Assembly (NCBI GenBank): GCA_947168655.1
Contig: CAMVMU010000003.1
Location: 1-64,000 of the forward strand
Length of the DNA stretch: 64,000 nt
Direction: 5' to 3'
Source: an uncultured Oscillospiraceae bacterium
Lineage (GTDB): Bacteria; Bacillota; Clostridia; Oscillospirales; Oscillospiraceae
Shown: positions 9,333 to 38,402 of the stretch, piece after piece
How positions within the stretch are numbered: position 1 is the first letter of the stretch
How the letters are laid out: the number at the start of each line of letters is the position of its first letter
Translations under genes and position numbers: made by a program
Notes under the pieces: generated by a model
What the model saw: the letters and a program-made list of their open reading frames with translations, nothing else
What the model was told of the DNA's origin: nothing
Database searches by the model: none

Positions 9333-9336
9333 ATGG

Positions 9337-10496: not shown

Positions 10497-10539
10497 GAAA
10501 AATCCTCCTTTGTAATAAGCGAAGTCCTTGTGGGCTGCA

Positions 10540-13172: not shown

Positions 13173-13214
13173 TAATCCGGACAATCGTGTTACACTTTGC
13201 CTGGAGGCGATGAA

Positions 13215-13700: not shown

Positions 13701-13828
13701 GTTTTTGAAATCATATAATTCTCAAAGATAAAGCATGGAGTTTTTTGATTATTTGTGCTAAAATGACAAAATAAGACATAATGGGATTATATAACGTGTT
13801 ACAAGACAGAAAAACCGGGGTGAGCAGC

Positions 13829-17053: not shown

Positions 17054-17083
17054 GCGATTACTGATGACAAGCGGGAGGACATT

Positions 17084-19205: not shown

Positions 19206-19248
19206 GACATACCTCTACAGGAATCTTGTTTTTTGAGGAGAGAGATAG

Positions 19249-21150: not shown

Positions 21151-21713
21151 TTGCTATGAAAATAATGGACAAATTTGAAATGCTTGAACAGTACATAAGC
21201 CACGCAGATGAAATCTTAGACAAAAATGATATATCTTCTGCTGAACAATTTGTGCGCGAAGTAGTTGCGGTATATGGTATGGAAATCAGTGACATAAAAA
21301 GCCAGCTAGATACCTTTAGCATTGTTGCGTCGTATGGTGTAGGTACGCCGGACTACTTGGGGGATGTAAAGCTTTTGAAGGCAAAGCTGATGAACTATTA
21401 CAATAACCTACGATCCGGACTTTATAAAACCCTCATGTCTAGCGATGGCACAAATATCCATGTCAATCAGGAGATGCATAGCTCTATAAGCATATCACTA
21501 GAGCAAGTCGCAGAGGCCATCAACCGCATTCCAGAAACTGAACTAAGCGCTGAAGAAAAAGTTGAACTGACTGGCAAGCTTGCTTCCCTTTGGGCCGATA
21601 AAGATAAGAAGTCAAAGTGGGATAAAGCGAAAGAGATCCTCAAGTGGATAGGGGACAAAAGCGTGCAGGTAGGGATTGCGGCATTGCCGTACATTACACA
21701 GTCGATACAATAA
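21147..21713 (+). CDS. Small helical protein between mod and res, with hydrophobic C-terminus
   Basis: 188 aa, start overlapping the mod stop (ATGA). Helical N-terminus, a strand-rich IHVNQEMHSSISIS segment near 110, then EEKVELTGKLASLWADKDKK and a C-terminal amphipathic to hydrophobic end (ILKWIGDKSVQVGIAALPYI). The end pattern is seen in various small conflict-system proteins whose last helix contacts membranes, which is a loose resemblance only. A+T-rich codons compared with res. Not recognised. Confidence 0.65.
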   Translation: MIAMKIMDKFEMLEQYISHADEILDKNDISSAEQFVREVVAVYGMEISDIKSQLDTFSIVASYGVGTPDYLGDVKLLKAKLMNYYNNLRSGLYKTLMSSDGTNIHVNQEMHSSISISLEQVAEAINRIPETELSAEEKVELTGKLASLWADKDKKSKWDKAKEILKWIGDKSVQVGIAALPYITQSIQ

Positions 21714-21722
21714 GGTGATACC

Positions 21723-22013
21723 ATGATTTATTCAGTACATGGCTATTATGGAAAAATAAATGGTCGCAAGCCACAGGCCAAGATTGAAGCCATAGTGTTT
21801 GCGGCATCTCCCAGTTTGGCACAAGAACTGGTGGAGAAGTTATTTGACGGCTATCCGGTTTTGTTTGACTATTTCACCGTGGTAGGAGGAACAGAGCAAG
21901 ATTTGCAAAAGATCTATAGAGAACGTCCAGAACTTGTTGGAATAGACCCTCATAGGGGCTACATTTATAACCAGTTTTCACACAAAGAGAGCATTCGGAG
22001 ATATTTCAAGTGA
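21723..22013 (+). CDS. 96-aa hypothetical protein between mod and res
   Basis: Starts after AAGGTGATACC, ten bases past the previous stop. Compact alpha/beta-looking sequence (MIYSVHGYYGKING, AIVFAASPSLAQELVEKLF) with no motif I recognise. Its position in the mod-res operon implies co-expression, perhaps with the 188-aa gene as a pair. Confidence 0.6.
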   Translation: MIYSVHGYYGKINGRKPQAKIEAIVFAASPSLAQELVEKLFDGYPVLFDYFTVVGGTEQDLQKIYRERPELVGIDPHRGYIYNQFSHKESIRRYFK

Positions 22014-22029
22014 AGGAGTTTAGTTATAT

Positions 22030-25000
22030 ATGAAACTCCAATTCAAACATCAAAAATTCCAAGCTGATGCAGCAAGGGCGGTTGTAGACGTATTTGCGGG
22101 ACAGCCCTATCTGACGCCCACCTATATGATAGACCGCGGCGCGGCGGATTACACCGAATCCGGACAAGTGGGCGGGCAGGTGCAGATGGCCGCTATGGAC
22201 AACTACACCGGCTGGAGCAATCAGAAGATCGTGCCGCAGCTCAACGACGCCGTGATTCTGGAAAACCTGCGGAAGATCCAACGGGCCAACCAGATCGAGC
22301 CGTCGGCCCAACTGGAGGGGCACTATAACCTGACCGTTGAGATGGAGACGGGCGTGGGCAAGACCTACACCTACATCAAGACCATGTACGAGCTGAACAA
22401 GCACTACGGCTGGAGCAAGTACATCGTCGTGGTGCCCAGCATCGCTATCCGCGAGGGTGTCTACAAATCCTTCCAGATGACACAGGAGCATTTTGCGGAG
22501 GAGTACGGCAAGAAGATCCGCTTCTTCATCTATAACTCCGCCCAGTTGACGGAGATCGACCGCTTTGCCTCCGACAGCGCCATCAACGTGATGATCATCA
22601 ACTCCCAGGCATTCAATGCCAAAGGAAAAGACGCCCGGCGCATTACCATGAGACTGGACGAGTTCCGCAGCCGCCGCCCCATAGACGTCATCGCCAAGAC
22701 GAACCCCATCCTGATCATTGACGAGCCCCAATCCGTGGAGGGCAAGCAGACCAAAGAGAACCTGAAGCAGTTCAACCCAATGCTCACCCTGCGCTATTCG
22801 GCCACCCACAAGGCGGACAGCATCTACAACATGGTGTATCGTCTGGACGCCATGGAGGCCTACAACAAGCGCCTGGTGAAGAAAATTGCCGTAAAGGGCA
22901 TCACCGAGTCCGGCAGCACGGGCACGGAGGGGTACGTGTATCTCCAGAGCATCAACCTGTCCAAGGCGGACCCCACCGCCACGATCCAGTTTGACTGCAG
23001 GGGTGCCACCGGGATAAGGAAGATCACAAAGACTGTTGGAATCGGCTTCAACCTGTTTGATTACTCCAACGGCATGGATGAGTACAAGGTGGGCTATGTG
23101 GTCAAGGCAATCGACGGACGGGATGACTCCGTCGAGTTCCTGAATGGCCTGAAAATCTATGCCGGGGATGTAGTGGGCAAGGTCAGCCAGGAGCAGCTGC
23201 GCCGGCTCCAGATTCGCGAGACGATTCTCTCCCACATCGAGCGGGAGCGCCAACTGTTTTACAAGGGTATCAAGGTGCTGTCCCTGTTCTTCATTGATGA
23301 AGTGGCCCACTACAAGTGCTATGACGCCGCAGGACAGGCCTACAACGGTATCTTTGCGGACATGTTCGAGCAGGAATATGAGGATGTGGTATCCACCCTT
23401 CAGCTGGGAATTGGCGAGGATGATTACCTCCGCTATCTCAAGGCCATTAAGCCGGAGGACACCCATGCGGGTTATTTCTCCATCGACAAAAAAGGGCATA
23501 TAGTGGACACCGTGGCTGGAGATGATAAGAAGGCGAAGATGTCCAACGATATCGACGCCTACGATCTGATTATGAAAAACAAGGAGCTGCTGCTGGATCG
23601 CGATCCGAAGCGCTCCCCTGTCCGGTTTATCTTCTCCCACTCTGCATTGCGGGAGGGGTGGGATAACCCCAATGTATTCCAGATTTGCACACTGAAGCAG
23701 AGTAGCAGCGATGTCCGCAAGCGCCAGGAGGTGGGCCGTGGCCTGCGCCTGTGCGTCAATCAGGACGGCGAACGTATGGACGCCAATGTGCTGGGAAACG
23801 ACGTACATAATATCAATGTACTGACGGTCATTGCCAGTGAGAGCTATGACAGCTTTGCCAAGGGGCTGCAGAGTGAGATCGCCGAGGCCGTTGCCAATCG
23901 GCCCCGTGCTGTTACGCCGGAGCTGTTTACGGGCAAGACCATTACAGATCAGAACGGAAATGCCGATGTGATCACGCAGCAGATGGCCCTGAACATCTGG
24001 TTCGATCTGCGTACCCGGGGATATGTTGACGAGGAAAACAGCCTGACAGACCAGTATTACGCGGATAAGAACAACAACGATCTGCAGGTATTCTCCGGTG
24101 TAGCGGACTATGCCGATTCTATCATCCAGATCCTTGACTCGATCTATGACGCCAAGGCTATGCAGCCGGAGAACGCGCGGAGCAACAATGTTGAGCTTAC
24201 CGTTGATCCGGACAAGCTGGCCATGCCGGAGTTCAAGGCGCTGTGGTCGAGAATCAATGCCAGGTCTGTCTATGTGGTGGACTTCGATACGGATGAACTG
24301 GTGCGAAAGGCAATTGACGCTCTGAACGCAAAGCTCCGTGTCACAAAGATCTTTTTCAGAGTGGAAACCGGCACCATGGACAAGATCGATTCCAAAGACG
24401 CCCTGCAGTCCGGCGAAGCCATGAAGAAGACGGAGTCCCGCGCGTCTGACGCACAGAGCCGCATTGCTGCCAACAAGGGCGTGAAATACGATCTGATCGG
24501 CAAGCTGGTGGAGGAAACCAAGCTGACCCGGAAAGATGTCGTAGCCATCCTGCGTGGGATCGACAAAGGCGTCTTTGACCAGTTCCGTGAGAATCCGGAG
24601 GACTTTATCATCAAGGCAGCCGCACTGATCAACGATGAAAAAGCCACCGCAATCATTCAGCATATCACTTATAACATGCTGGATGAGCGCTACGAAACTG
24701 ACCTCTTCACAGAACCCACCATCAGGGGCAAGCTGGGCGTCAATGCCATGAAGGCGAACAAGCATCTTTATGACCACATTGTGTATGACTCCGCCAATGA
24801 GCAGAAGTTTGCGACAGAACTGGACACCAACACAGATGTGGCCGTATATGTCAAGCTGCCGGACGGGTTCTATATTTCCACGCCCGTTGGAAAGTACAAC
24901 CCGGACTGGGCAATCGCGTTCTATGAGGGGAAGGTAAAACACATTTACTTCGTCGCGGAGACGAAGGGGTCCATGTCCTCGATGCAGCTTCGGCAGATTG

Positions 25001-25113
25001 AAGAGTCAAAAATCCACTGTGCGCGGGAGCACTTCAAAGCTATCAGCGGGGACAATGTGGTTTATGATGTGGTGGATAGTTATCAGACGCTGCTGGAGAA
25101 GGTTATGAAATAG
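22030..25113 (+). CDS. Type III restriction endonuclease subunit (Res)
   Basis: 1027 aa. Superfamily 2 helicase: Walker A METGVGKTYT near 104-113, DEPQ near 231 (the DEPQ box is typical for Res), SHSALREGWDNPNVF and RQEVGRGLRLC near 535-573. The C-terminus has the nuclease core NPDWAIAF...FVAETKG near 957-978 (PD-ExK). All catalytic parts appear intact. With Mod it would cut unmethylated DNA after communication between two sites. The antisense 972-aa ORF in the track is a mirror of this gene and is not real. Confidence 0.93.
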   Translation: MKLQFKHQKFQADAARAVVDVFAGQPYLTPTYMIDRGAADYTESGQVGGQVQMAAMDNYTGWSNQKIVPQLNDAVILENLRKIQRANQIEPSAQLEGHYNLTVEMETGVGKTYTYIKTMYELNKHYGWSKYIVVVPSIAIREGVYKSFQMTQEHFAEEYGKKIRFFIYNSAQLTEIDRFASDSAINVMIINSQAFNAKGKDARRITMRLDEFRSRRPIDVIAKTNPILIIDEPQSVEGKQTKENLKQFNPMLTLRYSATHKADSIYNMVYRLDAMEAYNKRLVKKIAVKGITESGSTGTEGYVYLQSINLSKADPTATIQFDCRGATGIRKITKTVGIGFNLFDYSNGMDEYKVGYVVKAIDGRDDSVEFLNGLKIYAGDVVGKVSQEQLRRLQIRETILSHIERERQLFYKGIKVLSLFFIDEVAHYKCYDAAGQAYNGIFADMFEQEYEDVVSTLQLGIGEDDYLRYLKAIKPEDTHAGYFSIDKKGHIVDTVAGDDKKAKMSNDIDAYDLIMKNKELLLDRDPKRSPVRFIFSHSALREGWDNPNVFQICTLKQSSSDVRKRQEVGRGLRLCVNQDGERMDANVLGNDVHNINVLTVIASESYDSFAKGLQSEIAEAVANRPRAVTPELFTGKTITDQNGNADVITQQMALNIWFDLRTRGYVDEENSLTDQYYADKNNNDLQVFSGVADYADSIIQILDSIYDAKAMQPENARSNNVELTVDPDKLAMPEFKALWSRINARSVYVVDFDTDELVRKAIDALNAKLRVTKIFFRVETGTMDKIDSKDALQSGEAMKKTESRASDAQSRIAANKGVKYDLIGKLVEETKLTRKDVVAILRGIDKGVFDQFRENPEDFIIKAAALINDEKATAIIQHITYNMLDERYETDLFTEPTIRGKLGVNAMKANKHLYDHIVYDSANEQKFATELDTNTDVAVYVKLPDGFYISTPVGKYNPDWAIAFYEGKVKHIYFVAETKGSMSSMQLRQIEESKIHCAREHFKAISGDNVVYDVVDSYQTLLEKVMK

Positions 25114-25125
25114 GAGGATGAAGAA

Positions 25126-27156
25126 ATGAGTGAGATTAATGGCCATGAATATCAACTACTGAAGATATTCAGCTCGGATTTTGAATACCACATTCCCGCA
25201 TATCAGAGACCGTATGCGTGGACAACAGAAGAAACAAACACTCTCTTTGATGACTTGTATGGCTTTTTTATTTCCGAAAATGAAGACGAGAATTATTTCC
25301 TTGGTAGCATTGTCCTAATTAAAGAAAACACGGACAGGAAAGCCGATGTAATTGACGGCCAGCAGAGATTGACCACGTTGACGATTCTATTTTCCGTTCT
25401 TGCAGATAATCTTACAGATCCGAAGAAGAAGGCGTCTTGTATGAAAAGACTACAAGAAGAAGGCGATGAACTTGCCGGAATTGCCAGCCTCCCACGAGTG
25501 TTTCTACGTGAATGGGATCAGGAATTCTTCAATAAATATATTCAAAATGTGAATCTCTCCGACTTGTTTAAAATTGATCCTGTGACACTTGACACGGAAG
25601 CAAAACGTCACATTCAGGAAAACTGCAAATCTTTATCTGTAAAATTCAAAGAAACTTTCCACGGTGACGAAGCAGAGCTGCTAAAGTTCAGCGGTTTTCT
25701 TTTGAACCGATGCTATCTTGTTGTGGTTTCCACTCCGAGTCAGGCATCTGCATTCAGAGTTTTCTCTGTAATGAATAGCCGAGGACTGAACCTCCTGCCG
25801 ACGGATATCATCAAATCCGAAACCATCGGGAAGCTACCTACCGATCTTCAACGGAGTTATACAGACAAGTGGGAGGAATTAGAAAATCAGGTTGGAAGAG
25901 ATGGATTCAATGAGGTGTTTACCCATACGCGTACCATATTTACAATGGAAAAGGCAAAGAAAAACCTTCTCGATGAATTCCGCTCTTTTGTGGTGTCTGA
26001 AACTACGCCCAAATCATTGATTGACGACTACCTTGAACCATATACTTTAGCTTATATGAAGCTAAAAAATTGTGCGTATACCTCGACCAAAAATGCGGAG
26101 GAAATTAACAGTTATCTGTATTGGCTGAATAAATCCAACAACTACGATTGGATGCCTCCAGCTATTCTATTTATGACCTTGCATCCGGATGATTCGGATT
26201 ATCTGCTCTGGTTTATCAGGAAGCTCGAACGTCTGTCTTCTTATCTTCAGGTAACAGCTCAGGATGTAAATCATAGAATGGCAAGATACAAATTCGTTCT
26301 GGCTGAATTGAAAGAAAGACTGAATAGCTCCTTGACAGATCCCATTCAAAACATTGAGTTGACAGAATGGGAAAAGGAGGAGTTCTTAAGAACACTAAAT
26401 GGCGAAATCTACACTATGCCTGCAGCGAGAAGAAACTATATCATCCAGCGCTTGGACTCCTTTGTTTCTGACGGGGGAGCAACCTATAACACCAAGCTCT
26501 TTACTATCGAGCATGTTCTTCCGCAGAACCCGAGTGCCGGGAGTGCATGGTTTGATTTGTGGCCGGATGCCAAGGAACGTCAATATTGGCTTAACCGTAT
26601 CGCCAACCTCGTTCCGCTCACAAGACAGAGAAATAGCGCAGCGCAGAACTATGACTTCAAAACTAAGAAGGAGAAGTACTTCACCACCAAGAGCGGAACA
26701 TCCTCTTATCAACTCACGACACAAGTGCTGAGTATTGACACATGGAGTCCGGCAATAGTAAAAAGTCGTCAAGAAGATATGCTAGATATCTTTGCGAGAA
26801 ACTGGGATCTGGAAAAGGACACTGAACGCAAAGGGAAAGAGAGCTTTCTACTGTCTGGCAGAGGAGGCAGCGCTACCGGCTATCCGCTGGATAGTGATAA
26901 CTTCATCGTCTACGCAGGCAGCAAGATTTCTAAAGATGTGACAGACGGATACCCACAGAATTATGCCAATCTCAGAGATTCTTTAATTGCTGATGGCGTT
27001 ATCGTTGATGGCATTTTTGCACATGACTATACATTTACCAGTTCATCTGCAGCGGCTTGTATAATTCTTGGAAGATCTGCAAATGGTAGAAAAGAATGGA
27101 CGCTGTTGGACGGCAGAACATATGGAAAGTACGGGGGCCTGGATTCGGACGACTGA
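25126..27156 (+). CDS. GmrSD-type endonuclease: DUF262-DUF1524 with C-terminal DUF4357
   Basis: 676 aa, AGGAGG site 12 bases after res. DUF262 (GmrS-like, NTP-using) is shown by YHIPAYQRPYAW, YFLGSIVL and DVIDGQQRLTTL (near 73-84). DUF1524 (GmrD-like, HNH) is shown by FTIEHVLPQNP near 460 and NRIANLVPLTRQRNSAAQN. A final part (about 590-676; FIVYAGSKIS, LRDSLIADGVI) fits DUF4357. GmrSD enzymes are type IV restriction systems that attack phage DNA with modified cytosines. Being last in the type III operon, it would cover phage that avoid Res by base modification. Confidence 0.88.
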   Translation: MSEINGHEYQLLKIFSSDFEYHIPAYQRPYAWTTEETNTLFDDLYGFFISENEDENYFLGSIVLIKENTDRKADVIDGQQRLTTLTILFSVLADNLTDPKKKASCMKRLQEEGDELAGIASLPRVFLREWDQEFFNKYIQNVNLSDLFKIDPVTLDTEAKRHIQENCKSLSVKFKETFHGDEAELLKFSGFLLNRCYLVVVSTPSQASAFRVFSVMNSRGLNLLPTDIIKSETIGKLPTDLQRSYTDKWEELENQVGRDGFNEVFTHTRTIFTMEKAKKNLLDEFRSFVVSETTPKSLIDDYLEPYTLAYMKLKNCAYTSTKNAEEINSYLYWLNKSNNYDWMPPAILFMTLHPDDSDYLLWFIRKLERLSSYLQVTAQDVNHRMARYKFVLAELKERLNSSLTDPIQNIELTEWEKEEFLRTLNGEIYTMPAARRNYIIQRLDSFVSDGGATYNTKLFTIEHVLPQNPSAGSAWFDLWPDAKERQYWLNRIANLVPLTRQRNSAAQNYDFKTKKEKYFTTKSGTSSYQLTTQVLSIDTWSPAIVKSRQEDMLDIFARNWDLEKDTERKGKESFLLSGRGGSATGYPLDSDNFIVYAGSKISKDVTDGYPQNYANLRDSLIADGVIVDGIFAHDYTFTSSSAAACIILGRSANGRKEWTLLDGRTYGKYGGLDSDD

Positions 27157-28367: not shown

Positions 28368-29207
28368 TTACGTCTTCCTCTCCCGTTCCAGCTTTGCCTG
28401 AGCGATCCAGGCAGGACCTTCCCAGTCGATACGTGCCGCGTTTGGGTGGCTTTTGCACCAAGGATTCAATCCGCTATCCAAAGAGGAAAGAAAGCTCTCA
28501 TAATGCTCCGCATTCCAACGGCTCCAAGGCAGCGTGTGATCCGCCGAGTACACATTATCCGGCTCGCCGTCCTTCCGCGGCGCGTTCACGTTGAGCCAGT
28601 ATTCACGGATCGCCGCCGTTTTTGTCCCCGGACGCGATGCGGCAATCTTCAGGATATAGCTGTCCACGGGAACGTGGAGGAATTGCCGGACAGACGGGCT
28701 GCTATCCGTGCGCAGCTCCTTCCAGAACCCCAGGAGCATCATGTACTTCAGCGTCATATTGACCCATTTCTGGGCCTGCCCGTAGTGAAATTTCGATCCC
28801 GTGTACTTATCCGGCAATAGTAAGTCGGATTGATTGGCGTAATCGCGGATTTGGGTACACAATTCCCGGTGCAATTTGTCAAAGGTCTCTTGATTATCTG
28901 TTGCCAGCAGCCCCTTAATGCGTTCGATCATTTTCACATCGCAATCGCTGCCGCTGCCTGCGCCCTTTTCTATGCCGTAAACCTTCTCGCGGAACGACCG
29001 CACGTTCTCTCTTTCGTGTGAGGACATTTCCTGCCCGTCCTTTTTGAGATAAGTCAATGTCCGATTGAAATCCAGATACGCACGCTCGGCACAGCAGCGA
29101 ATCACTTCATCGGCGTTGGCGGAATACATGTTCTCAAGTTCATCATAGGTATAGCCGAAATAGCCATATACGAGGAAATTCAACAATTCTCGTTCCTGAC
29201 AATCCAT
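28368..29207 (-). CDS. 279-aa protein paired with the WYL regulator, function unknown
   Basis: Follows the WYL gene by 14 bases with a GGAGG site. Helical N-terminus (LLNFLVYGYFGYTYDELENMY), then KFHYGQAQKWVNMTLKYMMLLG near 150-175, a well-ordered segment that looks like a family hallmark, and a C-terminal part with SADHTLPWSRWNAEHYESF. No catalytic signature recognised; I note only that it is linked to a WYL regulator and to a helicase/MoxR/VWA operon reading the other way. Confidence 0.7.
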   Translation of the reverse strand: MDCQERELLNFLVYGYFGYTYDELENMYSANADEVIRCCAERAYLDFNRTLTYLKKDGQEMSSHERENVRSFREKVYGIEKGAGSGSDCDVKMIERIKGLLATDNQETFDKLHRELCTQIRDYANQSDLLLPDKYTGSKFHYGQAQKWVNMTLKYMMLLGFWKELRTDSSPSVRQFLHVPVDSYILKIAASRPGTKTAAIREYWLNVNAPRKDGEPDNVYSADHTLPWSRWNAEHYESFLSSLDSGLNPWCKSHPNAARIDWEGPAWIAQAKLERERKT

Positions 29208-29221
29208 TTTTCAAACCTCCT

Positions 29222-30280
29222 TCAAACTTGTTGATACGCATCTACGGTTCTCTCCGCGTCCCGTCGGACAGCGTCCGCCAGACGTTTGGGTTCCAGAATC
29301 ACCACGTCCGGGGCATAGCTCTTGGCAAACTGCCGCATGGCCAGCTCATTGACCCGGGCCGTGACGGTGACGTGGGTATCCGTCTCATCGGAGAAGGCCA
29401 CATCCATGCCGAACAGGTCAATCACGTCGCTGACCATAGTCTTCACCACCCGGAAGGTGACCCGTGCTGTATCGCTGGCGTACATATAAATATGCTCGGC
29501 CATATACTTTGCCAGATCCAACTGGCCGTTTTCCGCGCCCCGCAGCGTCTCAAAGGGCTTCACCGGCTCGTCCAGCATCTTGATGTCTGCAATGCGATCC
29601 ACCCGGTAGTTGGAGATATCGTCGTACTTGTCGTAGTTGCAGATAAGGTAATACTTGCCCTCCTTGGCCGCCATCTGATAGGGACTCACCACGTACTGCC
29701 GCGCCGTGCCGTCCGGCCTGCACCGCTTGTGGCGCTGCTTGTCCGTGCCGTACTCCAGATAGGAGAAAGTCACCTTCCGTCCCGCGCTAATGGCCTCGTC
29801 CAGCACCTCGATGGTGTAGAACAGCTCCGGGTTCTGGGGCAGGGTGTCCGGCACGGTGTGGATATGGCTGACGTGGGCGTGGAAATACCGGCTGGACAGG
29901 CCCTCCAGCTTTTCCACCAGCTCCTTGCACTGGCTGTAGGGCAGGTGGCGGGAGAAGAGCAGGGAGTCGATCAGCAGCCGCAGCTCTGCCTCAGTGAAAT
30001 CCCGCACCAGATAGAAGTCGGACAGCAGCTTCGTCTCCACCATCTCCCCGGTCTTGGGGTCCGGCGCCATGCGCACCGCCTCGCTGTACTCCAGCTCCAC
30101 GCCCATTTCCAGCAGATGGGAGATATTGCGCCGGATAGCCTTGCGGTCCGCCGTCATGTCGTATTCGGTTTTCAAAATATTCGCGATGTCCCGCTGGCTG
30201 AGCCGGTGATCCGCGTCGGTGTAGCGGCGCAGGATGTCCAGGATCAGCATGGGCAGCACTTTCTTGGGTGGCTTTGTCAT
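29222..30280 (-). CDS. WYL-domain transcriptional regulator
   Basis: 352 aa. N-terminal winged HTH (LILDILRRYTDADHRLSQRDIANIL...DRKAIRRNISHLL, about 10-60), central WYL domain (VVSPYQMAAKEGKYYLICNYDKYDDISNYRVDRI, about 190-225) and a C-terminal WCX-like domain (VTFRVVKTMVSDVIDLFG). WYL proteins sense nucleic-acid ligands and often control defence loci. The TGTCCCA dyad directly ahead of its start (30329-30358) and the same motif near the helicase promoter suggest that it controls itself and the opposite operon. Confidence 0.88.
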   Translation of the reverse strand: MTKPPKKVLPMLILDILRRYTDADHRLSQRDIANILKTEYDMTADRKAIRRNISHLLEMGVELEYSEAVRMAPDPKTGEMVETKLLSDFYLVRDFTEAELRLLIDSLLFSRHLPYSQCKELVEKLEGLSSRYFHAHVSHIHTVPDTLPQNPELFYTIEVLDEAISAGRKVTFSYLEYGTDKQRHKRCRPDGTARQYVVSPYQMAAKEGKYYLICNYDKYDDISNYRVDRIADIKMLDEPVKPFETLRGAENGQLDLAKYMAEHIYMYASDTARVTFRVVKTMVSDVIDLFGMDVAFSDETDTHVTVTARVNELAMRQFAKSYAPDVVILEPKRLADAVRRDAERTVDAYQQV

Positions 30281-30310
30281 TTTCTATCACCTGCTGTCAG
30301 TTTATCATGT

Positions 30311-30358
30311 TTGTCCCAATAATACAACGTGAGATGGGACAAAATTGTCCCATCTCAC
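30311..30358. promoter_or_regulatory. 30-bp dyad with TGGGACAA/TTGTCCCA arms plus an extra half-site
   Basis: GTGAGATGGGACAA and TTGTCCCATCTCAC are perfect 14-bp arms around AA (30329-30358), with a further TTGTCCCA at 30311. It sits 49 bases upstream of the WYL start and directly after the stop of the small gene at 30359, so it could be an operator, a terminator, or both. Confidence 0.6.
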
Positions 30359-30709
30359 CTAAACCGGCGGCTGCTTCCGTTCCCCGTCTGTCAGAGTGCA
30401 GAGCCTTTCCTCAAAACGCACCAGCTGCTTATCCCAGCGGCACGGCACAATTATCTCACCGCTCCGATCTGCAACGATGATCTTCGCCCGGTCCGGCGCG
30501 TCCGGGTCAAATGGACTGTCATAATACGCCTCCCGGCAGGGCAGCAGCACGACGTCTGCCGTGTCAACGGGAAGAGCAAGCAGGTAATCATCCATTGAGG
30601 GGTATGGATCCTCGCGCTGGCCCGGATCACGGTACAGCGTGCCGGGCTGCAGCCCGCCGCCCGGCGCTTTGTCCAGCGGACCAAGTCCCGTGGGAATGGG
30701 GTTGTTCAT
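30359..30709 (-). CDS. Small hypothetical protein upstream of the WYL gene
   Basis: 116 aa from MNNPIPTGLGPLDKA, about ten bases after AGAGGAG; an ATG three codons earlier has too short a spacing. Pro- and Asp-rich, with ALPVDTADVVLLPCREAYYD and KIIVADRSGEIIVP. Not recognised. It reads toward the WYL gene and away from the helicase operon. Confidence 0.55.
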   Translation of the reverse strand: MNNPIPTGLGPLDKAPGGGLQPGTLYRDPGQREDPYPSMDDYLLALPVDTADVVLLPCREAYYDSPFDPDAPDRAKIIVADRSGEIIVPCRWDKQLVRFEERLCTLTDGERKQPPV

Positions 30710-30823
30710 AGGTGTCATTCTCCTCTTTTTCTCTGCACGGCTATCGCCTCCATGCTCTGCGTGCCAACTGCGATAGACGGTAATAATCGTCGGATTATGT
30801 TTTTAGTCGGCGTTTGTTCCATT

Positions 30824-30890
30824 TCGTCCCATTATTTTGCTTACACTGTACGGCAAGGCACGGGGCAAAAATGTCCCACGCCTTGCCGTA
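30824..30890. promoter_or_regulatory. Control region of the helicase operon: TCGTCCCA, ATGTCCCA and an 11-bp-stem hairpin
   Basis: TCGTCCCA lies at 30824 and ATGTCCCA at 30871. The second is inside a dyad whose outer arms TACGGCAAGGC and GCCTTGCCGTA (30849-30890) are perfect. TGTCCCA also occurs in the WYL control region. The remaining bases of 30720-31065 show a further direct repeat, ACGCGTACTC, near 30966-30985, and no gene I can support; the 84 extra codons of the track ORF are probably leader sequence. Confidence 0.5.
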
Positions 30891-31065
30891 TGCTTGTATG
30901 TGGTCAATAAAGCTTTTTGCGAGAACAATCCGTTTTTTTGGACTGAACATTGTATATGATCGCTCACGCGTACTCCTCACGCGTACTGACACACTGTTGG
31001 AAATCCAAATTGTTAGACGAATGCCGCCTTGGGCGGCAGATCATGAAAGTGAGGTGGAGAGGATC

Positions 31066-34000
31066 ATGGGCGGAAACAGAACAAAGCAGCCGAAGTTGGA
31101 TCAGATGATTCAGCTTTCCCTGTTTGACAGTTTTCTGGAGGATCTCCGCGCCGCCGGCGCCATGACCGCCGGGAAGATCTCGGAGGTCATCGAAAAGCTG
31201 CAGAAAGCAAAGGACAAGATGGCAAGGCGGGAGAAAGAGGAGGCGCGCCGTAAAGAGCAGCTGGAGGCGGAGGAAACGGCCTGGCAGGAGGTGGGGCGCC
31301 GGACTGACCACGTGGAGGAGATCACCAGCATGGATCTCCCCATGGACTGGGAGAACGTCTTTCCATCCGATACGGCCACCCAGGGCGTTCATACCGACAG
31401 CATCTCCGACGGCCTGATCCTGTCCCTTTCCAATCTGGGACGGGTGGACATCGAGTACATCGCCGCCGTTACCGGCGCGGATTACAAGACGGTGATCTCC
31501 ACGCTGCAGGGCTCCATCTATCAGAATCCGGACACCTGGGAGGAGTGCTTTTACAAGGGCTGGGAGACGGCGGAGGAATACCTCTCCGGCAATCTCATGC
31601 GAAAGTGGCGGCTGGCCCGGGAGGCGGACAGGCAGTACAGCGGCTGTTTTGCCAATAACGTCCGCGCCATTGAAAAGGTGCTGCCGCCCACGGTTGCCAC
31701 AAAGGACATCTATGTGACGCTGGGCTCCCCCTGGGTACCCGCCGACGTGATCGATGATTTCATGGAACACCTTTTCGGCCAGCTGCCCTCCCGCTTTTTC
31801 AATCAGGAGAAGGCAAGGGTCAAACACGATGAGATCACCGGCACCTGGGAGATCCCCTTGAAGAGCCGGTACAACCACAATGTGGCCACCACCCGGACAT
31901 ACGGCACAAAGCGCCTGGAGGCCCTGTATATTCTGGAAAAGACGTTGAATATGAGGACCGTCTCCGTTACCGACGGGGTCAGCTGCCCCACCAACGCCTC
32001 CGGCAAAAAGCGGGTGCTGAACCAGCCGGAGACCGTGCTGGCTCTGGAGAAGCAGAAAAAGCTGGTGGATGAGTTCCGGCGCTGGGTCTGGCTGGATCCG
32101 CAGCGAAAGGAACGGTTGGAGAACATCTTTGAGAACAACTTTAGCTGCGTCCGCCGCCGGATCTTCGACGGGTCGTTTCTCGTGTTCCCCACCATGTCGC
32201 CGGATGTGTCCCTGTACCCCTACCAGAAGGACGCCGTGGCCCGCATCCTGTTTTCCCCCAACACCCTGCTGGCCCATGACGTGGGCAGCGGCAAGACCTA
32301 CGTGATGATCGCCGCCGGCATGGAGCTGCGGCGGATGGGGCTCTCGAAAAAGAACCTGTACGTGGTGCCCAACAACATCGTGGGGCAGTGGAAAAATATC
32401 TTTTTGACCATGTATCCCCAGGCAAAACTCCTGTGCGTGGAGCCGAAAACCTTCACGCCGAAAAAGCGGGGAAGGGTGCTGGAGAACATCCGCGACAATG
32501 ACTATGACGGCGTCATCATGGCCTACAGCTGCTTCGAGCAGATCCCCCTCTCCAAGGAATACTACATGGAGGATCTGGAGGAGAAGAAAGAAGCGATCGT
32601 GCGGCTTGCCGCAGATGCCAACAAGGCGACCTCCCGTCTGGATAAAAAGCGGGAGGATATCTCCAAGGCTCTGTCCCAGCTGGCGGTGGCTGTGACAAGC
32701 CTCGATGAAGGCGTGTTTTTTGATGAGCTGGGCGTCACCCGGCTCTTTGTGGACGAGGCACACAACTATAAAAACGTGCCGCTGGACACCAAGCTCAGCA
32801 ACGTTCTGGGGATCAGCGCCAGAGGCTCCAAAAAGTGTCAGGATATGCTGGACAAGGTGCGCATGATCCAGAAGCAGAACGGCGGGGGCGGCGTGGTGAT
32901 GGCCACCGGGACCCCCATCACAAACTCCATCACCGACGCCTTTGTGATCCAGCAGTATCTTCAGAGCGGCGAGCTGGCGCTGGTGGATCTCCAGAACTTT
33001 GACAGCTGGGTGGGCATGTTTGCCGAGCGCGTCACAGAGTTTGAGATCGACGTGGACACCTCCTCCTACCGCCTTGCCACCCGCTTTGCCCGGTTCCACA
33101 ATCTGCCGGAGCTGACGGCGCTTCTCTCCTCCGTGGCAGATTTCCATCAGACGGATTCCAGCGCCGGCATTCCGGTTCTTGACGGCTATTCCGATGCGCT
33201 GGTGGGGAAAACCGCGGCTTTTGAGGACTACCTCCAGAGCATCTCGCGGCGTGCCGACGCCGTGCGCCGGGGCCGCGTCAGCCGCAAGGAAGACAACATG
33301 CTGAAAATTACGACGGACGGGCGCAGGGCTGCGCTGGATCTCCGGCTGGTGGATCCCAACGCCGCTTTTACCTGCCAATCCAAGGTGGTACGCTGCGCTC
33401 AAAACGTGTGTGACATCTATCGCCGTACGATGAAGTCCTGCGGCACCCAGCTGGTGTTCTGCGATTCCTCCATCCCCAAGGCCGGGTTCAATATGTACGA
33501 CGACCTCCGGAATCTGTTGGTGGGAATGGGGATCCCACCGGTGAAAATTGCCTTCATCCATGACGCAGAGACGGAATCAGCGCGGTCAAAGCTGTTTGAG
33601 CGAGTGCGGCAGGGAGAGATCCGTGTCCTCATCGGCTCCACCTTTAAGCTGGGACTGGGCGTCAACGTGCAGGACAGGCTGATTGCGCTGCACCATCTGG
33701 ACGTGCCGTGGCGTCCCGCGGACATGACCCAGCGGGAGGGACGCATCCTCCGTCAGGGCAACCAGAACCCCAAGGTGCAGATCTTCCGCTACGTCACCGA
33801 GGGCAGCTTTGACGCCTATTCCTGGCAGCTGCTGGAGACGAAGCAGCGGTTCATTACGGGTCTCCTCTCCGGTTCGCTGACAGAGCGCAGCGGCGCAGAC
33901 ATCGAGGACACAGTGCTGGACTATGCCGAAGTGAAGGCGTTGGCGGTGGGCGATCCGCTGGTGAAGGAGCGGGTGGAGGCCGCCAACGAGTTGAGCCGGT

Positions 34001-34584
34001 ATCTGACGCTGCAGCGCAAGCTGCTGGAGAGCCGGCTGCAGATGGAGAAGGAGCTGCTGGAGCTGCCTGCGCGCATGGAGCACCAGCGGGATCTGATCCG
34101 CCGCTGCCGGGAGGACCGGGACGATTATGAAAAAGTGCGCTGCCTGGTCCCCGTTCCCGTGACGGCGGCGGAGAAGGCGTGGGAGGCGGAGGAGCGCAGG
34201 ACCCTGCGGCAGCGGATCAACACCGCCGTGTCGGAAAACGTGCTGAAAAACACCGAGCGCCTCCTGCTGACCTACCGAGGTTTTCAGATCGTGCTCCCCG
34301 CCAATATGCTGGCGGAGAAGCCCTTCGTCTGGGTGCAGCGGGCCGGGAAATACTACCTGGAGCTGGGCGATACCGAACGGGGTAACCTGACGCGCATTGA
34401 CAATCTGCTGGAAACCCTGCCCCGCCGCGCAGAGGAACTGTGGGAGAGCCTTGAGAGAATGAAGTCCCGGGAGGCCGCCATTCACGCCGAGCTGGCGAAA
34501 AAGGAGAGCTACAGCGAGCAGATCGAGACATTCCGGGAGCTGGTCAAAACACTGGATGAGAAGTTGGGAGTGAACACGCGATGA
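31066..34584 (+). CDS. Large SNF2-like DNA helicase of the MoxR/VWA operon
   Basis: 1172 aa from MGGNRTKQPKLDQMIQ (GGAGAGG site). The first 400 residues are a separate helical and DNA-binding-like part (ANNVRAIEKVLP, SRYNHNVATTRTYGTKRLEAL). Then a helicase of the kind fused to phage or plasmid N6-methylases: AHDVGSGKTYVM near 400-412, VDEAHNYKN near 562, MATGTPITNS near 612, and WRPADMTQREGRILRQGN near 880-897. The C-terminal 270 residues are coiled coil. No methylase motif (NPPF) is visible. The stop overlaps the start of the MoxR gene (ATGA), so the three downstream proteins are likely made together. Confidence 0.85.
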   Translation: MGGNRTKQPKLDQMIQLSLFDSFLEDLRAAGAMTAGKISEVIEKLQKAKDKMARREKEEARRKEQLEAEETAWQEVGRRTDHVEEITSMDLPMDWENVFPSDTATQGVHTDSISDGLILSLSNLGRVDIEYIAAVTGADYKTVISTLQGSIYQNPDTWEECFYKGWETAEEYLSGNLMRKWRLAREADRQYSGCFANNVRAIEKVLPPTVATKDIYVTLGSPWVPADVIDDFMEHLFGQLPSRFFNQEKARVKHDEITGTWEIPLKSRYNHNVATTRTYGTKRLEALYILEKTLNMRTVSVTDGVSCPTNASGKKRVLNQPETVLALEKQKKLVDEFRRWVWLDPQRKERLENIFENNFSCVRRRIFDGSFLVFPTMSPDVSLYPYQKDAVARILFSPNTLLAHDVGSGKTYVMIAAGMELRRMGLSKKNLYVVPNNIVGQWKNIFLTMYPQAKLLCVEPKTFTPKKRGRVLENIRDNDYDGVIMAYSCFEQIPLSKEYYMEDLEEKKEAIVRLAADANKATSRLDKKREDISKALSQLAVAVTSLDEGVFFDELGVTRLFVDEAHNYKNVPLDTKLSNVLGISARGSKKCQDMLDKVRMIQKQNGGGGVVMATGTPITNSITDAFVIQQYLQSGELALVDLQNFDSWVGMFAERVTEFEIDVDTSSYRLATRFARFHNLPELTALLSSVADFHQTDSSAGIPVLDGYSDALVGKTAAFEDYLQSISRRADAVRRGRVSRKEDNMLKITTDGRRAALDLRLVDPNAAFTCQSKVVRCAQNVCDIYRRTMKSCGTQLVFCDSSIPKAGFNMYDDLRNLLVGMGIPPVKIAFIHDAETESARSKLFERVRQGEIRVLIGSTFKLGLGVNVQDRLIALHHLDVPWRPADMTQREGRILRQGNQNPKVQIFRYVTEGSFDAYSWQLLETKQRFITGLLSGSLTERSGADIEDTVLDYAEVKALAVGDPLVKERVEAANELSRYLTLQRKLLESRLQMEKELLELPARMEHQRDLIRRCREDRDDYEKVRCLVPVPVTAAEKAWEAEERRTLRQRINTAVSENVLKNTERLLLTYRGFQIVLPANMLAEKPFVWVQRAGKYYLELGDTERGNLTRIDNLLETLPRRAEELWESLERMKSREAAIHAELAKKESYSEQIETFRELVKTLDEKLGVNTR

Positions 34585-35696
34585 AAGAGATGAAACTATC
34601 CAATATCCCCTCCATGCCGGTGGGGAAGCTGATCGACACACTGGCGGAGACTTATACCGCCGTGATCCGGAGGGGCGTGCCTCTGCGCACGGTGCCCTCG
34701 GTGATGCTGTGGGGCCCGCCGGGCGTGGGCAAAAGCCAGGCGGTACGCCAGCTGGCACAGGCGCTCAGGCAGTCCACGGGAAAGCGCACCGCCGTCACCG
34801 ACGTGCGGCTGCTGCTGTTTAACCCCATTGATCTGCGAGGCATCCCCACCGCCAACGCCGACAAGACGCTGGCTATCTGGCTCAAGCCCCGGATCTTCCA
34901 GATGGACGAGAGTGACGACGTGGTAAACATCCTCTTTCTGGACGAGATCTCCGCCGCGCCCCAGTCGGTGCAGGCGGCGGCCTATCAGATCACCCTGGAC
35001 CGTGTGGTGGGTGAGCACGCTCTGCCGGAGAACTGCCTCGTCATCGCCGCCGGCAACCGCACCACCGACAAGTCCGTAGCATTCAAAATGCCCAAGGCAC
35101 TGGCCAACCGCCTCCTCCACATCGAGGTGGAGGGCAGCTTCGCATCCTGGCGGGCGTGGGCGGTAAAAAGCGGCGTCAACGACAAGGTGGTGGGCTTTCT
35201 CTCCTTCCGCCAGAACTACCTCATGGGCTTCGATGCCGCCTCGGATGACCTGGCCTTTGCCACGCCCCGCTCCTGGGAGATGGTCAGCAATCTGCTCAAC
35301 CACGTGAAAAGCGACGTGGACGCCATGTATCCGCTTATCGCGGGACTGGTGGGCACGGGCGTGGCGGTGGAGTTCCGCACCTGGGCGCGGGTCTACGGCC
35401 AACTGCCGGAGATCCGTGATATCTTTGACGGCAAAATGCCGTCCCCGCCCTCCAATACCGATGCCCTCTATGCCCTTACCGCCGCCATGACCGCCTATGC
35501 CCGGGATCATCGGACGGACATGGCCCGTATCGCCAATTCCATCCGCTATGCCGACCGCCTGCCGCCGGACTTCTCCGTGGTGGTGATGAAGGACTATATG
35601 TATCTGGAGCCGGACTACAAAAACAAGCTGATGGCCGTGCCGGAGTTTGCTCGGTGGCTGAGAACAAGGGGGAAACTGCTCAATGGCGCTGTCTGA
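34581..35696 (+). CDS. MoxR-type AAA+ ATPase
   Basis: 371 aa. Walker A GPPGVGKSQAVRQ near 45-57, Walker B NILFLDEISAAPQSVQAAAYQ near 114-134, sensor segment VIAAGNRTTDKSVAF near 152, and sensor 2 region ATPRSWEM near 230. MoxR ATPases act as chaperone-like remodelers with VWA partners, and the next gene, overlapping by 14 bases, encodes a VWA protein. The pair probably responds to, or is driven by, the helicase. In other conflict systems MoxR-VWA pairs form the core of a three-part module. Confidence 0.88.
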   Translation: MKEMKLSNIPSMPVGKLIDTLAETYTAVIRRGVPLRTVPSVMLWGPPGVGKSQAVRQLAQALRQSTGKRTAVTDVRLLLFNPIDLRGIPTANADKTLAIWLKPRIFQMDESDDVVNILFLDEISAAPQSVQAAAYQITLDRVVGEHALPENCLVIAAGNRTTDKSVAFKMPKALANRLLHIEVEGSFASWRAWAVKSGVNDKVVGFLSFRQNYLMGFDAASDDLAFATPRSWEMVSNLLNHVKSDVDAMYPLIAGLVGTGVAVEFRTWARVYGQLPEIRDIFDGKMPSPPSNTDALYALTAAMTAYARDHRTDMARIANSIRYADRLPPDFSVVVMKDYMYLEPDYKNKLMAVPEFARWLRTRGKLLNGAV

Positions 35697-36933
35697 GGAA
35701 AAGGTTCGCGAGTATATCCGCCGCCTGCTGCTCTCCCGGATGCGCCTGCTCTGCAGCCACGGGTTTTTCGGCCTGCTGCTGATGCATATGGCGTACGGGG
35801 TGGACGAACAGCAGGAGACCGCCTGCACCGATGGGGTCCGCATCATCTTTGGAACAGCGTTTCTGGACAGCCTCAATGACCGGGAGCTGGACTTTGTGAT
35901 GATGCACGAGATCATGCATGTGGTGCTGCAGCACTGCCTCCGGGGCAGCGATCTGGATCACGAGCGATTCAATATCGCCTGCGATATCGTGGTCAACTCC
36001 AATATCCTTCTGGAGTGCGGCATGGATCCCCGGGCGATCCGGCTGCGGGCGTATGGAGAGGCGATGCACCTGGCACCCGACGGAAAGGAGGGTTACGAGT
36101 ACACCGCCGAGCAGGTCTACCAAATGCTCCCGCCCTCGAAAAAGCAAAAAGAAAAAGCTTCCGGCGTCGCAGCCAAGGGACGCGCCGGACAGGAGATGGG
36201 ACAGGGGAGAAACGCCCCCGGCTGGCGGTGGGACGACCACTCCCGCTGGGGCATGTATGAGGAGGACAGCACCCTCCGGGACGTCTGGGTCAAGCGGTTC
36301 GAGGACGCCTGTGAGGCCATCTCCATCCGCGATCCATCCAACTGCCGCGGGCTGCTGCCCGCCTTTGCCCGGCGGCTGCTGGCGGAGCTGCGCAAGCCAC
36401 AGACGGACTGGCGCGCCATCCTCAATGACTTTGTGCAGGAGGAGGTGGTGGACTACTCCTTCACGCCACCCGACCGGCGCTTTGAAGGCCCGTTCTTTCT
36501 GCCGGATTTCAGCGATAAGGAGGATCTGGTGGAGGACATTCTCTTTATGATTGACACCTCCGCCTCCATGTCAGACGATATGATCGCCGCCGCCTACTCC
36601 GAGATCAAAGGCGCCATCGACCAGTTCAACGGCAAGCTGCGGGGCTGGCTTGGCTTTTTCGATGCGGCGATCATCGAACCGAGACCCTTCGAGAGTGAGG
36701 AGGAGTTCCGGGTCATTCATCCCGCCGGAGGCGGCGGCACGGACTTTCAGATCATTTTTGAGTATGTTGCCGGACACATGGCGGAAAAGCCGCCCGCCAG
36801 CATCATCATCCTGACGGACGGCTACGCGCCCTTCCCGCAGGAACCGCTTGCCCGGGGAATTCCGGTCCTGTGGCTGCTGAACAACGAGGAGGTGCAGCCA
36901 CCCTGGGGCAAGGTGGCGCGGATCAAGGTATAA
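35683..36933 (+). CDS. VWA-like protein with N-terminal metallopeptidase domain (DUF2201 type)
   Basis: 416 aa. The N-terminal half carries MMHEIMHVVLQHC (HExxH zinc site near 75-79) with a downstream Asp-rich NIACDIVVNSN helix. The C-terminal half is a VWA-like domain with MIDTSASMSDDMI (DxSxS MIDAS near 290) and ILTDGYAPFP. The layout matches DUF2201 predicted metallopeptidases. Both metal sites look intact, so proteolysis triggered through MoxR and the helicase is a plausible mode of action, which is inference. Confidence 0.85.
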   Translation: MALSEEKVREYIRRLLLSRMRLLCSHGFFGLLLMHMAYGVDEQQETACTDGVRIIFGTAFLDSLNDRELDFVMMHEIMHVVLQHCLRGSDLDHERFNIACDIVVNSNILLECGMDPRAIRLRAYGEAMHLAPDGKEGYEYTAEQVYQMLPPSKKQKEKASGVAAKGRAGQEMGQGRNAPGWRWDDHSRWGMYEEDSTLRDVWVKRFEDACEAISIRDPSNCRGLLPAFARRLLAELRKPQTDWRAILNDFVQEEVVDYSFTPPDRRFEGPFFLPDFSDKEDLVEDILFMIDTSASMSDDMIAAAYSEIKGAIDQFNGKLRGWLGFFDAAIIEPRPFESEEEFRVIHPAGGGGTDFQIIFEYVAGHMAEKPPASIIILTDGYAPFPQEPLARGIPVLWLLNNEEVQPPWGKVARIKV

Positions 36934-37131: not shown

Positions 37132-38151
37132 TTAATAACGGGGATACCGGTATGTGAACCGGAAAAAGAATATATTCTGTTTCTCGTTAAAACTGGCGGA
37201 ATAAGTGTAACCGTTTGTGCAGTACTTGTTCGCGGCCTTTTCCACCAATTCCGCTATCTGCAGAGCATCCGCTCTCGTCAGACTGCTGTTTCTCTTCAGC
37301 TTGAAGTAAATCACTTCTTCCTGTGCGGCCATCTTGGCGGAAAGAAAAGGCTCCAGGCCAGAAAGGCTGCTGATCATTGCCTTTTTACTTACAAAATAGC
37401 TGTGGGAAGAGCTGATGCATGGAGGTGTGTCTGAGTAGGTGTGGTCAAGCTTTGTGTCTTCGTCGCTGATACAAAAATAATCATACCGATCGAAATGACT
37501 ATGTGTGCTGACGTTGATATCCCAGGTCACGTCCATGTGGGCAAAGCCGTCATTCAATTTTACAATGTTCCAGGCGTGACTGACGATCTGTCCGGTCTGT
37601 GAATCTGCGGACGAGCCCGATACCAGCATGCAGAACAGATTGGCCTTGTCGCACAGGTATTTGAACGCTTTGGCAATTCCCTCGCAGACGGCTGCGTGAG
37701 AGAGGAATACCCCCGCTATGGTATGTGCTTCCAAATTTGCCCTGGAATTGGAGGGCGCTGAGGAATCGTATCTTACCGCGTGCAGCAGCTGATCATGCAA
37801 AATCTGATACTGGATGTAGCTGGGTCTCATCCTGTCTACACCGATGGCTTTGATAATCGCATCGGCCCGGGCGTCAATCTGCTGCTTTAACGCCTCCGCA
37901 GCGGCAGGCGGATACAGATATTCCAGCTGCAGGGTATAGCCTCGATAGTCGTGCAGATAGCTTTGCTTTTGGAAGTTCACATAGAAGAGTTCCGGGTGAT
38001 CATAGTTGACCGCCTGAACGGTTGCCGCAAATGCGTCTTTCGTCAGCAGAGGGGAACCGGAGACATGGGATTTCCTTTCAGCGATCGCAGAGAGCAGCCG
38101 CCGATAAAAGCTTTTACCACCACTTGACAATTTTTGATAGTAGTATTCCAT
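37132..38151 (-). CDS. Transglutaminase-like superfamily protein
   Basis: 339 aa from MEYYYQKLSS. A transglutaminase/cysteine-protease fold is shown by HAAVCEGIAKAFKYLCD (nucleophile Cys near 154), VSHAWNIVKLND (His near 191) and MDVTWDIN (Asp near 208), in the usual order and spacing. No signal peptide, so it is probably cytoplasmic. In clostridia such proteins serve in cell-wall or spore processes or as peptidases. It stands alone, with a different codon feel from the G+C-rich neighbours. Confidence 0.8.
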   Translation of the reverse strand: MEYYYQKLSSGGKSFYRRLLSAIAERKSHVSGSPLLTKDAFAATVQAVNYDHPELFYVNFQKQSYLHDYRGYTLQLEYLYPPAAAEALKQQIDARADAIIKAIGVDRMRPSYIQYQILHDQLLHAVRYDSSAPSNSRANLEAHTIAGVFLSHAAVCEGIAKAFKYLCDKANLFCMLVSGSSADSQTGQIVSHAWNIVKLNDGFAHMDVTWDINVSTHSHFDRYDYFCISDEDTKLDHTYSDTPPCISSSHSYFVSKKAMISSLSGLEPFLSAKMAAQEEVIYFKLKRNSSLTRADALQIAELVEKAANKYCTNGYTYSASFNEKQNIFFFRFTYRYPRY

Positions 38152-38402
38152 AGCCACTTTGCCCCTCGCTCATCGATTAGGATGTAATCGTTTCATACAA
38201 AAGATTTCGCATGAAAAACGTATTCTCACGCACATCCGTGCCCATTTGTTTAATCACATAATAATAGAGGGTAAATGGAAAGTCAATTATGTCCGGTTGA
38301 AGTACTTCTGTATCACATACCCACCAGCGCCGACCGGAAACAGCCGGTGTTCGGCAGCTGCACGCGCTGCGGCCCCAAAACAGAGGGCATGGGGAACAAA
38401 AA

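What the first reader, a model, noticed from the sequence alone, without database searches (positions are those of the whole stretch)
28368..36933. WYL-controlled helicase/MoxR/VWA-metallopeptidase block as a candidate three-part conflict system
A large SNF2-type helicase without methylase motifs, a MoxR ATPase and a VWA protein with an intact HExxH site overlap in one operon, divergent from a WYL regulator with a 279-aa unknown. MoxR-VWA pairs are the core of predicted ternary systems. The order suggests DNA sensing by the helicase, ATP-driven remodelling by MoxR and proteolysis by the VWA protein. I cannot name a described system with exactly these parts.
Basis: partly seen in the sequence, partly recalled or inferred. 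Interest (0 to 1): 0.65.

Follow-up and report, generated by a model that had tools for sequence, protein, structure and literature searches.

The report
Mobile helicase–ATPase–protease operon under WYL
Gut-type Clostridia share a patchily inherited three-gene operon (a DNA-tracking motor borrowed from mobile elements, an AAA+ ATPase and a metalloprotease) that here sits beside a WYL switch and its probable binding sites; it is probably an undescribed defence-type system, but nothing has shown its function yet.

Summary
HEL (31066-34584), MoxR (34581-35696) and a DUF2201 metallopeptidase-VWA protein (35683-36933) overlap in one operon, divergent from WYL plus a 279-aa unknown. Homologues share conserved SF2, Walker, HExxH and MIDAS motifs. 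The trio is a real unit: 49 of 62 loci found in Clostridia genomes carry all three in this order, and the three proteins' distance matrices agree (r 0.86-0.92). HEL is the helicase half of DarB-like phage/plasmid polyvalent proteins without the methylase. MoxR-VWA alone is a wider phage and chromosomal pair. In this genus the block is a ~10 kb insertion between two genes that are neighbours in seven relatives, and no conjugation genes were found around other copies. A palindrome found once in the 1.7 Mb assembly lies upstream of WYL, and a degenerate copy upstream of HEL; a sister genome carries the same WYL (94%) and palindromes with a PcrA/PolC/DnaB-like cassette instead. So WYL is probably the switch, and the trio one of several interchangeable loads. 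WYL and the 279-aa gene are not part of the core. Defence is the best but unproven reading; repair of DNA-protein complexes is the main rival. No library model or paper searched describes this set.

The parts
31066..34584 (+). HEL: DarB-like SWI2/SNF2 helicase/translocase, 1172 aa, no methylase domain (the ORF can be extended to TTG 30814)
   Evidence: Pfam SNF2-rel_dom, Helicase_C; phrog_10089 DarB-like antirestriction 1.5e-245 over aa 194-1235 of the long ORF; conserved SF2 motifs in 48 homologues
34581..35696 (+). MoxR-type AAA+ ATPase, 371 aa
   Evidence: AAA_3/AAA_5; phrog_1297 1.2e-93; Walker A GxPGxGKS, Walker B LFLDE, sensor AGN conserved in 54 homologues
35683..36933 (+). DUF2201 metallopeptidase (HEIMH, residues 75-79) fused to a C-terminal vWA domain with MIDAS, 416 aa
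   Evidence: PF13203 1.3e-32, PF09967 1.9e-16; phrog_1314 3e-73; invariant H75 E76 H79 D101 D291 S293 S295 T353; AF2 model pLDDT 73, C-terminal half matches vWA folds incl. Rea1-MIDAS and NorQD
29222..30280 (-). WYL regulator (N-terminal winged-HTH by inspection, then WYL and WCX), 352 aa
   Evidence: PF13280 1.8e-12, PF25583 2.3e-6; 94% identical copy in a genus relative, L122 13346-14401
28368..29207 (-). U279, unknown gene directly after WYL on the same strand; not a core part
   Evidence: No family; 59-62% homologue beside the same WYL in G011 without the trio; 29% homologue divergent from WYL in L066; AF2 low confidence, all-helical, pLDDT 55
30329..30358 (.). Palindrome 1 (GTGAGATGGGACAA-AA-TTGTCCCATCTCAC), 49 bp upstream of WYL: probable WYL operator
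   Evidence: perfect 14-nt arms; degenerate core pattern occurs once in the 1.7 Mb assembly, 0 in the backwards control
30849..30890 (.). Palindrome 2 (19-nt arms, 84% complementary, core GGGGCAAAAATGTCCC), 176 bp upstream of HEL: probable second WYL operator
   Evidence: matching palindromes at L122 5471, 8645 and 13274
30359..30718 (-). Decayed remnant of a DnaB/RadA-like ATPase gene (Walker A region deleted)
   Evidence: two BLASTP segments to the full gene L122 8655-9524; weak DnaB_C

Best explanation
A horizontally moving, WYL-switched three-protein module of Clostridia, most likely a defence-type system. Shown by sequence: the three proteins are inherited as a unit; all catalytic motifs are kept; HEL is kin to the helicase half of DarB-like proteins that phages and conjugative elements carry; probable operator palindromes sit upstream of both WYL and HEL; the block was inserted between chromosomal neighbours. 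Inferred: WYL (by analogy with BrxR and CapW) holds the operon low and releases it on a nucleic-acid signal; HEL then tracks along incoming or stalled DNA and recognises a foreign or abnormal DNA-protein complex; MoxR, docked on the vWA domain, uses ATP to remodel it; and the DUF2201 zinc peptidase cuts one or more bound proteins, stopping the invader (or, if the target is a host protein, the cell). Each inferred step is untested.
For: Trio order conserved in 49 of 62 loci and in distant trios G050 (36-43% identity) and G585 (40-44%); distance matrices HEL/MoxR/VWA r 0.86-0.92, Mantel p 0.001. HEL of trios forms one clade (support 0.88; 0.98 with G050) apart from 21 other, mostly giant-protein, helicases. 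Motifs conserved. Patchy: a close MoxR in 9 of 391 class genomes, at least two of them without HEL; the VWA gene at high identity in none of the 31 other genus genomes. Insertion: PDA and HTH126 are neighbours (71-197 bp) in seven relatives but about 10.2 kb apart here. Palindromes unique to the two loci with this WYL among 1.14 Mb and the core found once in the own assembly. WYL genes in 28 of 70 trio loci. Decayed copies in five loci. Upstream lies a type III R-M, PLD-helicase and GmrSD island.
Against: No protection assay exists. PADLOC hits among 130 neighbours, apart from WYL, are not clearly more frequent than among 93 control proteins. Several recurrent neighbours are repair- or replication-like (LigA, RtcB, Pnkp ligase, PolC-like). 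The MoxR-VWA pair also stands alone in chromosomes among ordinary genes. WYL subfamily and position vary and WYL distances correlate only weakly with the trio (r 0.34-0.47). The palindromes are shown only for this WYL and its 94% relative.
Confidence: 0.5

Rival explanations
1. A DNA-protein-complex repair module. By analogy with eukaryotic SPRTN plus p97 and a helicase (own knowledge), the SNF2 motor, MoxR unfoldase and HExxH peptidase clear crosslinked or stalled proteins from DNA; WYL, like PafBC, responds to ssDNA made by damage.
For: The combination of a dsDNA translocase, AAA+ remodeller and metalloprotease; neighbours include an FtsH-like AAA protease with HEAGH, CbbX-like AAA, DNA ligase, RtcB, Pnkp ligase and PolC-like genes; ssDNA-activated WYL regulators are known (PMC11804915).
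Against: Very patchy distribution, insertion between chromosomal neighbours and decayed copies are unlike a housekeeping repair pathway. HEL's nearest kin outside the trio are mobile-element proteins.
Confidence: 0.22
2. A domesticated or left-over piece of a mobile element: an antirestriction-type helicase with a chaperone-protease pair that once served phage or plasmid protein processing (as proposed for jumbo-phage MoxR/metallopeptidase-vWA pairs), now a passenger or superinfection-exclusion device.
For: HEL is DarB-like and MoxR/VWA match phrog_1297/phrog_1314; a VWA homologue with a nearby AAA+ gene lies near replication genes in Thermus phage phiFa, and a VWA homologue is in Bacillus phage G; Iyer et al. 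2021 propose virion maturation (PMC7824862).
Against: No conjugation marker near 70 trio loci; the only IMG/VR contig with a close VWA carries an interrupted HEL; phage VWA homologues are about 30% identical or less and no phage trio was seen; motifs are conserved across many families.
Confidence: 0.18
3. A neutral neighbourhood: three independent genes that happen to be adjacent here.
For: MoxR-VWA occurs without HEL in distant genomes; HEL occurs without MoxR-VWA in G086.
Against: 49 of 62 conserved trios and congruent distances.
Confidence: 0.03

Closest known systems
vWA-MoxR-VMAP and related ternary conflict systems (Kaur et al. 2020, PMC7159879; iSTAND versions in PMC12839542)
   Same: MoxR AAA+ plus vWA core; peptidase fused to the vWA protein in some members; predicted defence
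   Different: Third partner is a DarB-like SNF2 helicase; no VMAP, iSTAND, EAD or TCAD domain found; Clostridia rather than mainly multicellular bacteria
MoxR / metallopeptidase-vWA pair of jumbo phages (Iyer et al. 2021, PMC7824862; phrog_1297 + phrog_1314)
   Same: Same two protein families, same metallopeptidase-vWA fusion
   Different: Phage genomes, no HEL partner reported, no WYL; about 30% identity or less
DarB-like methylase-helicase polyvalent proteins (Iyer et al. 2017, PMC5512222)
   Same: Homologous helicase half (38-41% identity to giant relatives in the order)
   Different: Here a stand-alone 1172-aa protein without methylase, in a chromosomal operon
DISARM DrmD, Zorya ZorD, PLD-helicase and other SNF2 defence helicases
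   Same: SF2 helicase core
   Different: Only 19-56 bits against NCBIfam cut-offs of 610-1500; none of the partner genes is in the operon
BrxR/CapW-type WYL repressors (PMC9122601, PMC9122588)
   Same: HTH-WYL regulator with an inverted repeat just upstream of its gene and, as in the BrxR island, a second one before the effector operon
   Different: DNA binding and repression not tested; the regulated genes are not BREX or CBASS

Membership tests
vWA-MoxR-VMAP ternary conflict system | MoxR AAA+ ATPase | tested here: met
   AAA_3/AAA_5 hits and conserved Walker/sensor motifs
vWA-MoxR-VMAP ternary conflict system | vWA protein with MIDAS, optionally with a peptidase | tested here: met
   DUF2201 VWA-like, invariant D291 S293 S295 T353, vWA fold match
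vWA-MoxR-VMAP ternary conflict system | third component VMAP (or iSTAND) with EAD/TCAD domains | tested here: not met
   No such Pfam family in the five genes; HEL occupies the third place in 49 loci. A highly divergent iSTAND could be missed
Jumbo-phage MoxR/metallopeptidase-vWA pair | same protein families | tested here: met
   phrog_1297 1.2e-93, phrog_1314 3e-73
Jumbo-phage MoxR/metallopeptidase-vWA pair | carried by a phage and linked to virion assembly | tested here: not met
   Chromosomal site between PDA and HTH126; one IMG/VR contig with a close relative, carrying an interrupted HEL. Virion role itself not testable
DarB-like polyvalent protein | SWI2/SNF2 module of the DarB type | tested here: met
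   phrog_10089 E 1.5e-245
DarB-like polyvalent protein | fused adenine methylase and location in a phage or conjugative element | tested here: not met
   No methylase domain; no conjugation markers in the flanks
DISARM | DrmD above curated cut-off | tested here: not met
   DrmD 43 bits against a cut-off of 610
BrxR-type WYL regulator | HTH plus WYL plus C-terminal WCX-type domain | tested here: met
   Pfam WYL and WCX; the N-terminal HTH was read by eye only
BrxR-type WYL regulator | inverted repeats upstream of the regulator and of the regulated operon | tested here: met
   30329-30358 and 30849-30890
BrxR-type WYL regulator | binds the repeats and represses | not testable with these tools
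   needs EMSA and reporter assays
Anti-phage defence system | protects against phage or plasmids | not testable with these tools
Anti-phage defence system | enriched next to known defence genes | tested here: inconclusive
   PADLOC counts in 130 neighbours against 93 controls, WYL aside, not clearly different; the window copy does lie beside a type III R-M/GmrSD island

The most novel reading that the evidence does not exclude
An undescribed immunity family in Clostridia in which bacteria turned the mobile elements' own DNA-riding helicase (DarB type) into a sensor that feeds invader DNA-protein complexes to a MoxR-driven metalloprotease, carried as one of several interchangeable loads (trio; PcrA/PolC/DnaB-like spare replication proteins; AAA-protease sets) that share WYL switches.
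Probability: 0.35. Interest if true: 0.75.

Novelty: new variant of a known kind. Interest (0 to 1): 0.55.

Why it matters
If it is a defence system it would be a MoxR-vWA conflict system with a DNA motor instead of a VMAP sensor, in common gut and rumen Clostridia, built from a helicase type that mobile elements use against restriction. The paired palindromes give a direct handle on when it is switched on. Even if it is a repair device, it would be a bacterial translocase-unfoldase-metalloprotease set comparable in logic to SPRTN/p97.

Tried and rejected
Pfam, NCBIfam, PADLOC and PHROGs gave no named system. bpMoxR family search in the genome: one weak hit elsewhere, not this gene. Conjugation tie: markers absent in 70 loci; the test used two plasmid marker sets and could miss distant relatives. 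PADLOC neighbour enrichment: inconclusive; the control is small and the tool reports only counts. General palindromes before HEL in other loci: mostly terminator-like hairpins; no shared operator, except a similar-looking palindrome TGTCCCAAAATTGGGACA in L082. U279 structure: too few homologues, poor model. PDB sequence matches for MoxR and VWA: none. The fold search matched only the vWA half in the hits shown, so the metallopeptidase fold and its third metal ligand (D101 suspected) are not confirmed. I first suspected the CbbX-like F676 as an obligatory fourth part; it occurs with WYL but without the trio nearby in G121 and G099.

Full report
OBSERVATION. Pfam finds SNF2-related and Helicase_C domains and no methylase in the large protein, MoxR-type AAA domains in the second, a DUF2201 metallopeptidase plus DUF2201 VWA-like domain in the third, WYL plus WCX in the regulator and nothing in the 279-aa protein. 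The helicase most likely begins at ATG 31066: a good ribosome site precedes it, and homologues start to align only near there. Frames overlap by 4 and 14 nt.

ONE UNIT. A scan of 84,980 species genomes with the VWA protein returned 62 loci, all from Clostridia-type MAGs or isolates at 47-83% identity. 49 carry HEL, MoxR and VWA in the same order; eight of the rest are cut by contig ends and five are decayed. Very distant trios exist in G050 and G585 at 36-44% identity. Pairwise distance matrices of the three proteins agree (Pearson 0.86-0.92, Mantel p 0.001), whereas WYL agrees only weakly (0.34-0.47). SF2 motifs, Walker A/B, HExxH and MIDAS columns are conserved in 48-54 homologues, and H75, E76, H79, D101, D291, S293, S295 and T353 are invariant in a 32-member alignment. 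So the core is the trio; WYL and U279 are attachments.

ORIGIN OF THE PARTS. HEL residues 194-1235 match the helicase part of the DarB-like antirestriction family (phrog_10089, 1.5e-245). In the order sampled, trio-type HELs are 50-68% identical and most of the next matches, at 37-41%, lie in ORFs of about 2000-3400 codons. On plasmids the relatives are giant SNF2 proteins, beside the MobP2 relaxase and conjugation genes in the two records opened. DarB protects P1 DNA in cis against type I restriction (PMC5512222). Trio HELs form one clade, support 0.88, or 0.98 with G050. MoxR and VWA match phrog_1297 and phrog_1314; phrog_1314 is labelled HNH endonuclease, but the window member matches DUF2201. 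The pair is known in jumbo phages, where virion processing was proposed (PMC7824862), and here it was also seen alone in chromosomes of other members of the phylum.

MOBILITY. Seven same-genus relatives have HTH126 and the polysaccharide deacetylase gene (PDA) 71-197 bp apart; in the window about 10.2 kb lies between them. In G007 and G008 other DNA, not identified, separates the same genes. The VWA gene at high identity is in none of the 31 other genus genomes, and a close MoxR in 9 of 391 class genomes, at least two of them without HEL. Relaxase, VirD4, TraE, pLS20_p028, PcfJ and serine-recombinase queries gave no hit in the flanks of 70 trio loci.

THE SWITCH. A perfect palindrome lies 49 bp upstream of WYL, and a longer imperfect one with a related core 176 bp upstream of HEL. 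A degenerate form of the core occurs once in the 1.7 Mb assembly. The three-mismatch search alone is not strongly significant (3 matches, reached by 4 of 100 shuffles); the case rests on position and on the sister genome. G011 (L122) carries a 94% WYL and a 59-62% U279 with no trio, and shows the same palindromes before its WYL, before a 270-aa gene and, degenerate, between divergent PcrA-like and DnaB-like genes; none of the 70 trio loci has the motif in the form searched. The window keeps a remnant of that DnaB-like gene (30359-30718) and the same promoter region, with HEL standing where the PcrA-like gene stands in G011. G011 also has a PolC-like gene before WYL (868.7 bits against a cut-off of 873). 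I infer that one WYL/operator system has been re-used for different loads. BrxR binds such repeats and represses (PMC9122601).

NEIGHBOURS. WYL proteins occur in 28 of 70 trio loci, a CbbX-like AAA protein in 16, an FtsH-like AAA protease in 11 (HEAGH intact in 10 of 11 sequences read), PolC-like genes in 5, LigA and RtcB in 3 each. PADLOC counts among 130 neighbours, WYL aside, do not clearly exceed 93 control proteins, so defence enrichment is not shown. The window itself has a type III R-M, PLD-helicase, DUF4391 and GmrSD island at 13.2-27.2 kb.

MECHANISM AND VERDICT. The most likely reading is a WYL-switched defence-type module (0.5): HEL tracks DNA, MoxR remodels, and the DUF2201 peptidase cuts. 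Only the parts list, conservation, insertion and palindromes are shown. Repair of DNA-protein complexes (0.22) and a domesticated mobile-element leftover (0.18) remain open. Caveats: most loci come from MAGs; the AF2 model of VWA is modest (pLDDT 73) and the fold search confirmed only the vWA half; the literature search covers open-access papers only.

Noticed in passing
L122 4641-15249 (G011): A WYL-linked cassette with a PcrA-type UvrD helicase, a DnaB/RadA-like ATPase, a PolC-like polymerase III alpha (PHP, NTPase, finger domains) and U279: it looks like spare replication proteins under WYL control. PolC-like genes also lie in five trio loci.
   Followed up: partly
L134 4216-6066: A large serine recombinase (CcrB/XisF-like) abuts the HEL coding sequence at helicase motif VI, with ParB-like and AAA genes before it: apparently a mobile element inserted into HEL.
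   Followed up: partly
window 13197-27156: Defence-type island: SLOG protein, PLD+SNF2 helicase, two DUF4391 proteins, type III Mod and Res, GmrSD with DUF4357.
   Followed up: partly
window 7830-12003: A probable tyrosine recombinase (7830-9332 +, by eye; no NCBIfam or Pfam hit) and a large serine recombinase (10540-12003 -, XisF/CcrB-like) just upstream of that island.
   Followed up: no
L055 13034-18875 and similar loci: Recurrent downstream set: CbbX/SpoVK-like AAA protein with a ~400-aa unknown N-terminal part, a 283-aa unknown, and an FtsH-like AAA protease. The AAA protein also occurs with WYL but without the trio nearby (L174, L175).
   Followed up: partly
trio neighbourhoods (A1 set, L061, L079, L107): RNA-repair-type genes (RtcB, Pnkp ligase, HAD_SAK_2, calcineurin-like phosphoesterases) occur near several trio copies.
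   Followed up: no
L117 7648-11136 (G086): A trio-type HEL (about 50% identical) with no MoxR or VWA within the 19 kb read.
   Followed up: no
phrog_1314 / many phage records: The label HNH endonuclease appears to be wrong for this family: the window member matches DUF2201 metallopeptidase plus VWA.
   Followed up: partly
window 37132-38157: Transglutaminase-like gene (lower GC3 than its neighbours) on the minus strand, inside the inserted block but not conserved with the trio.
   Followed up: no
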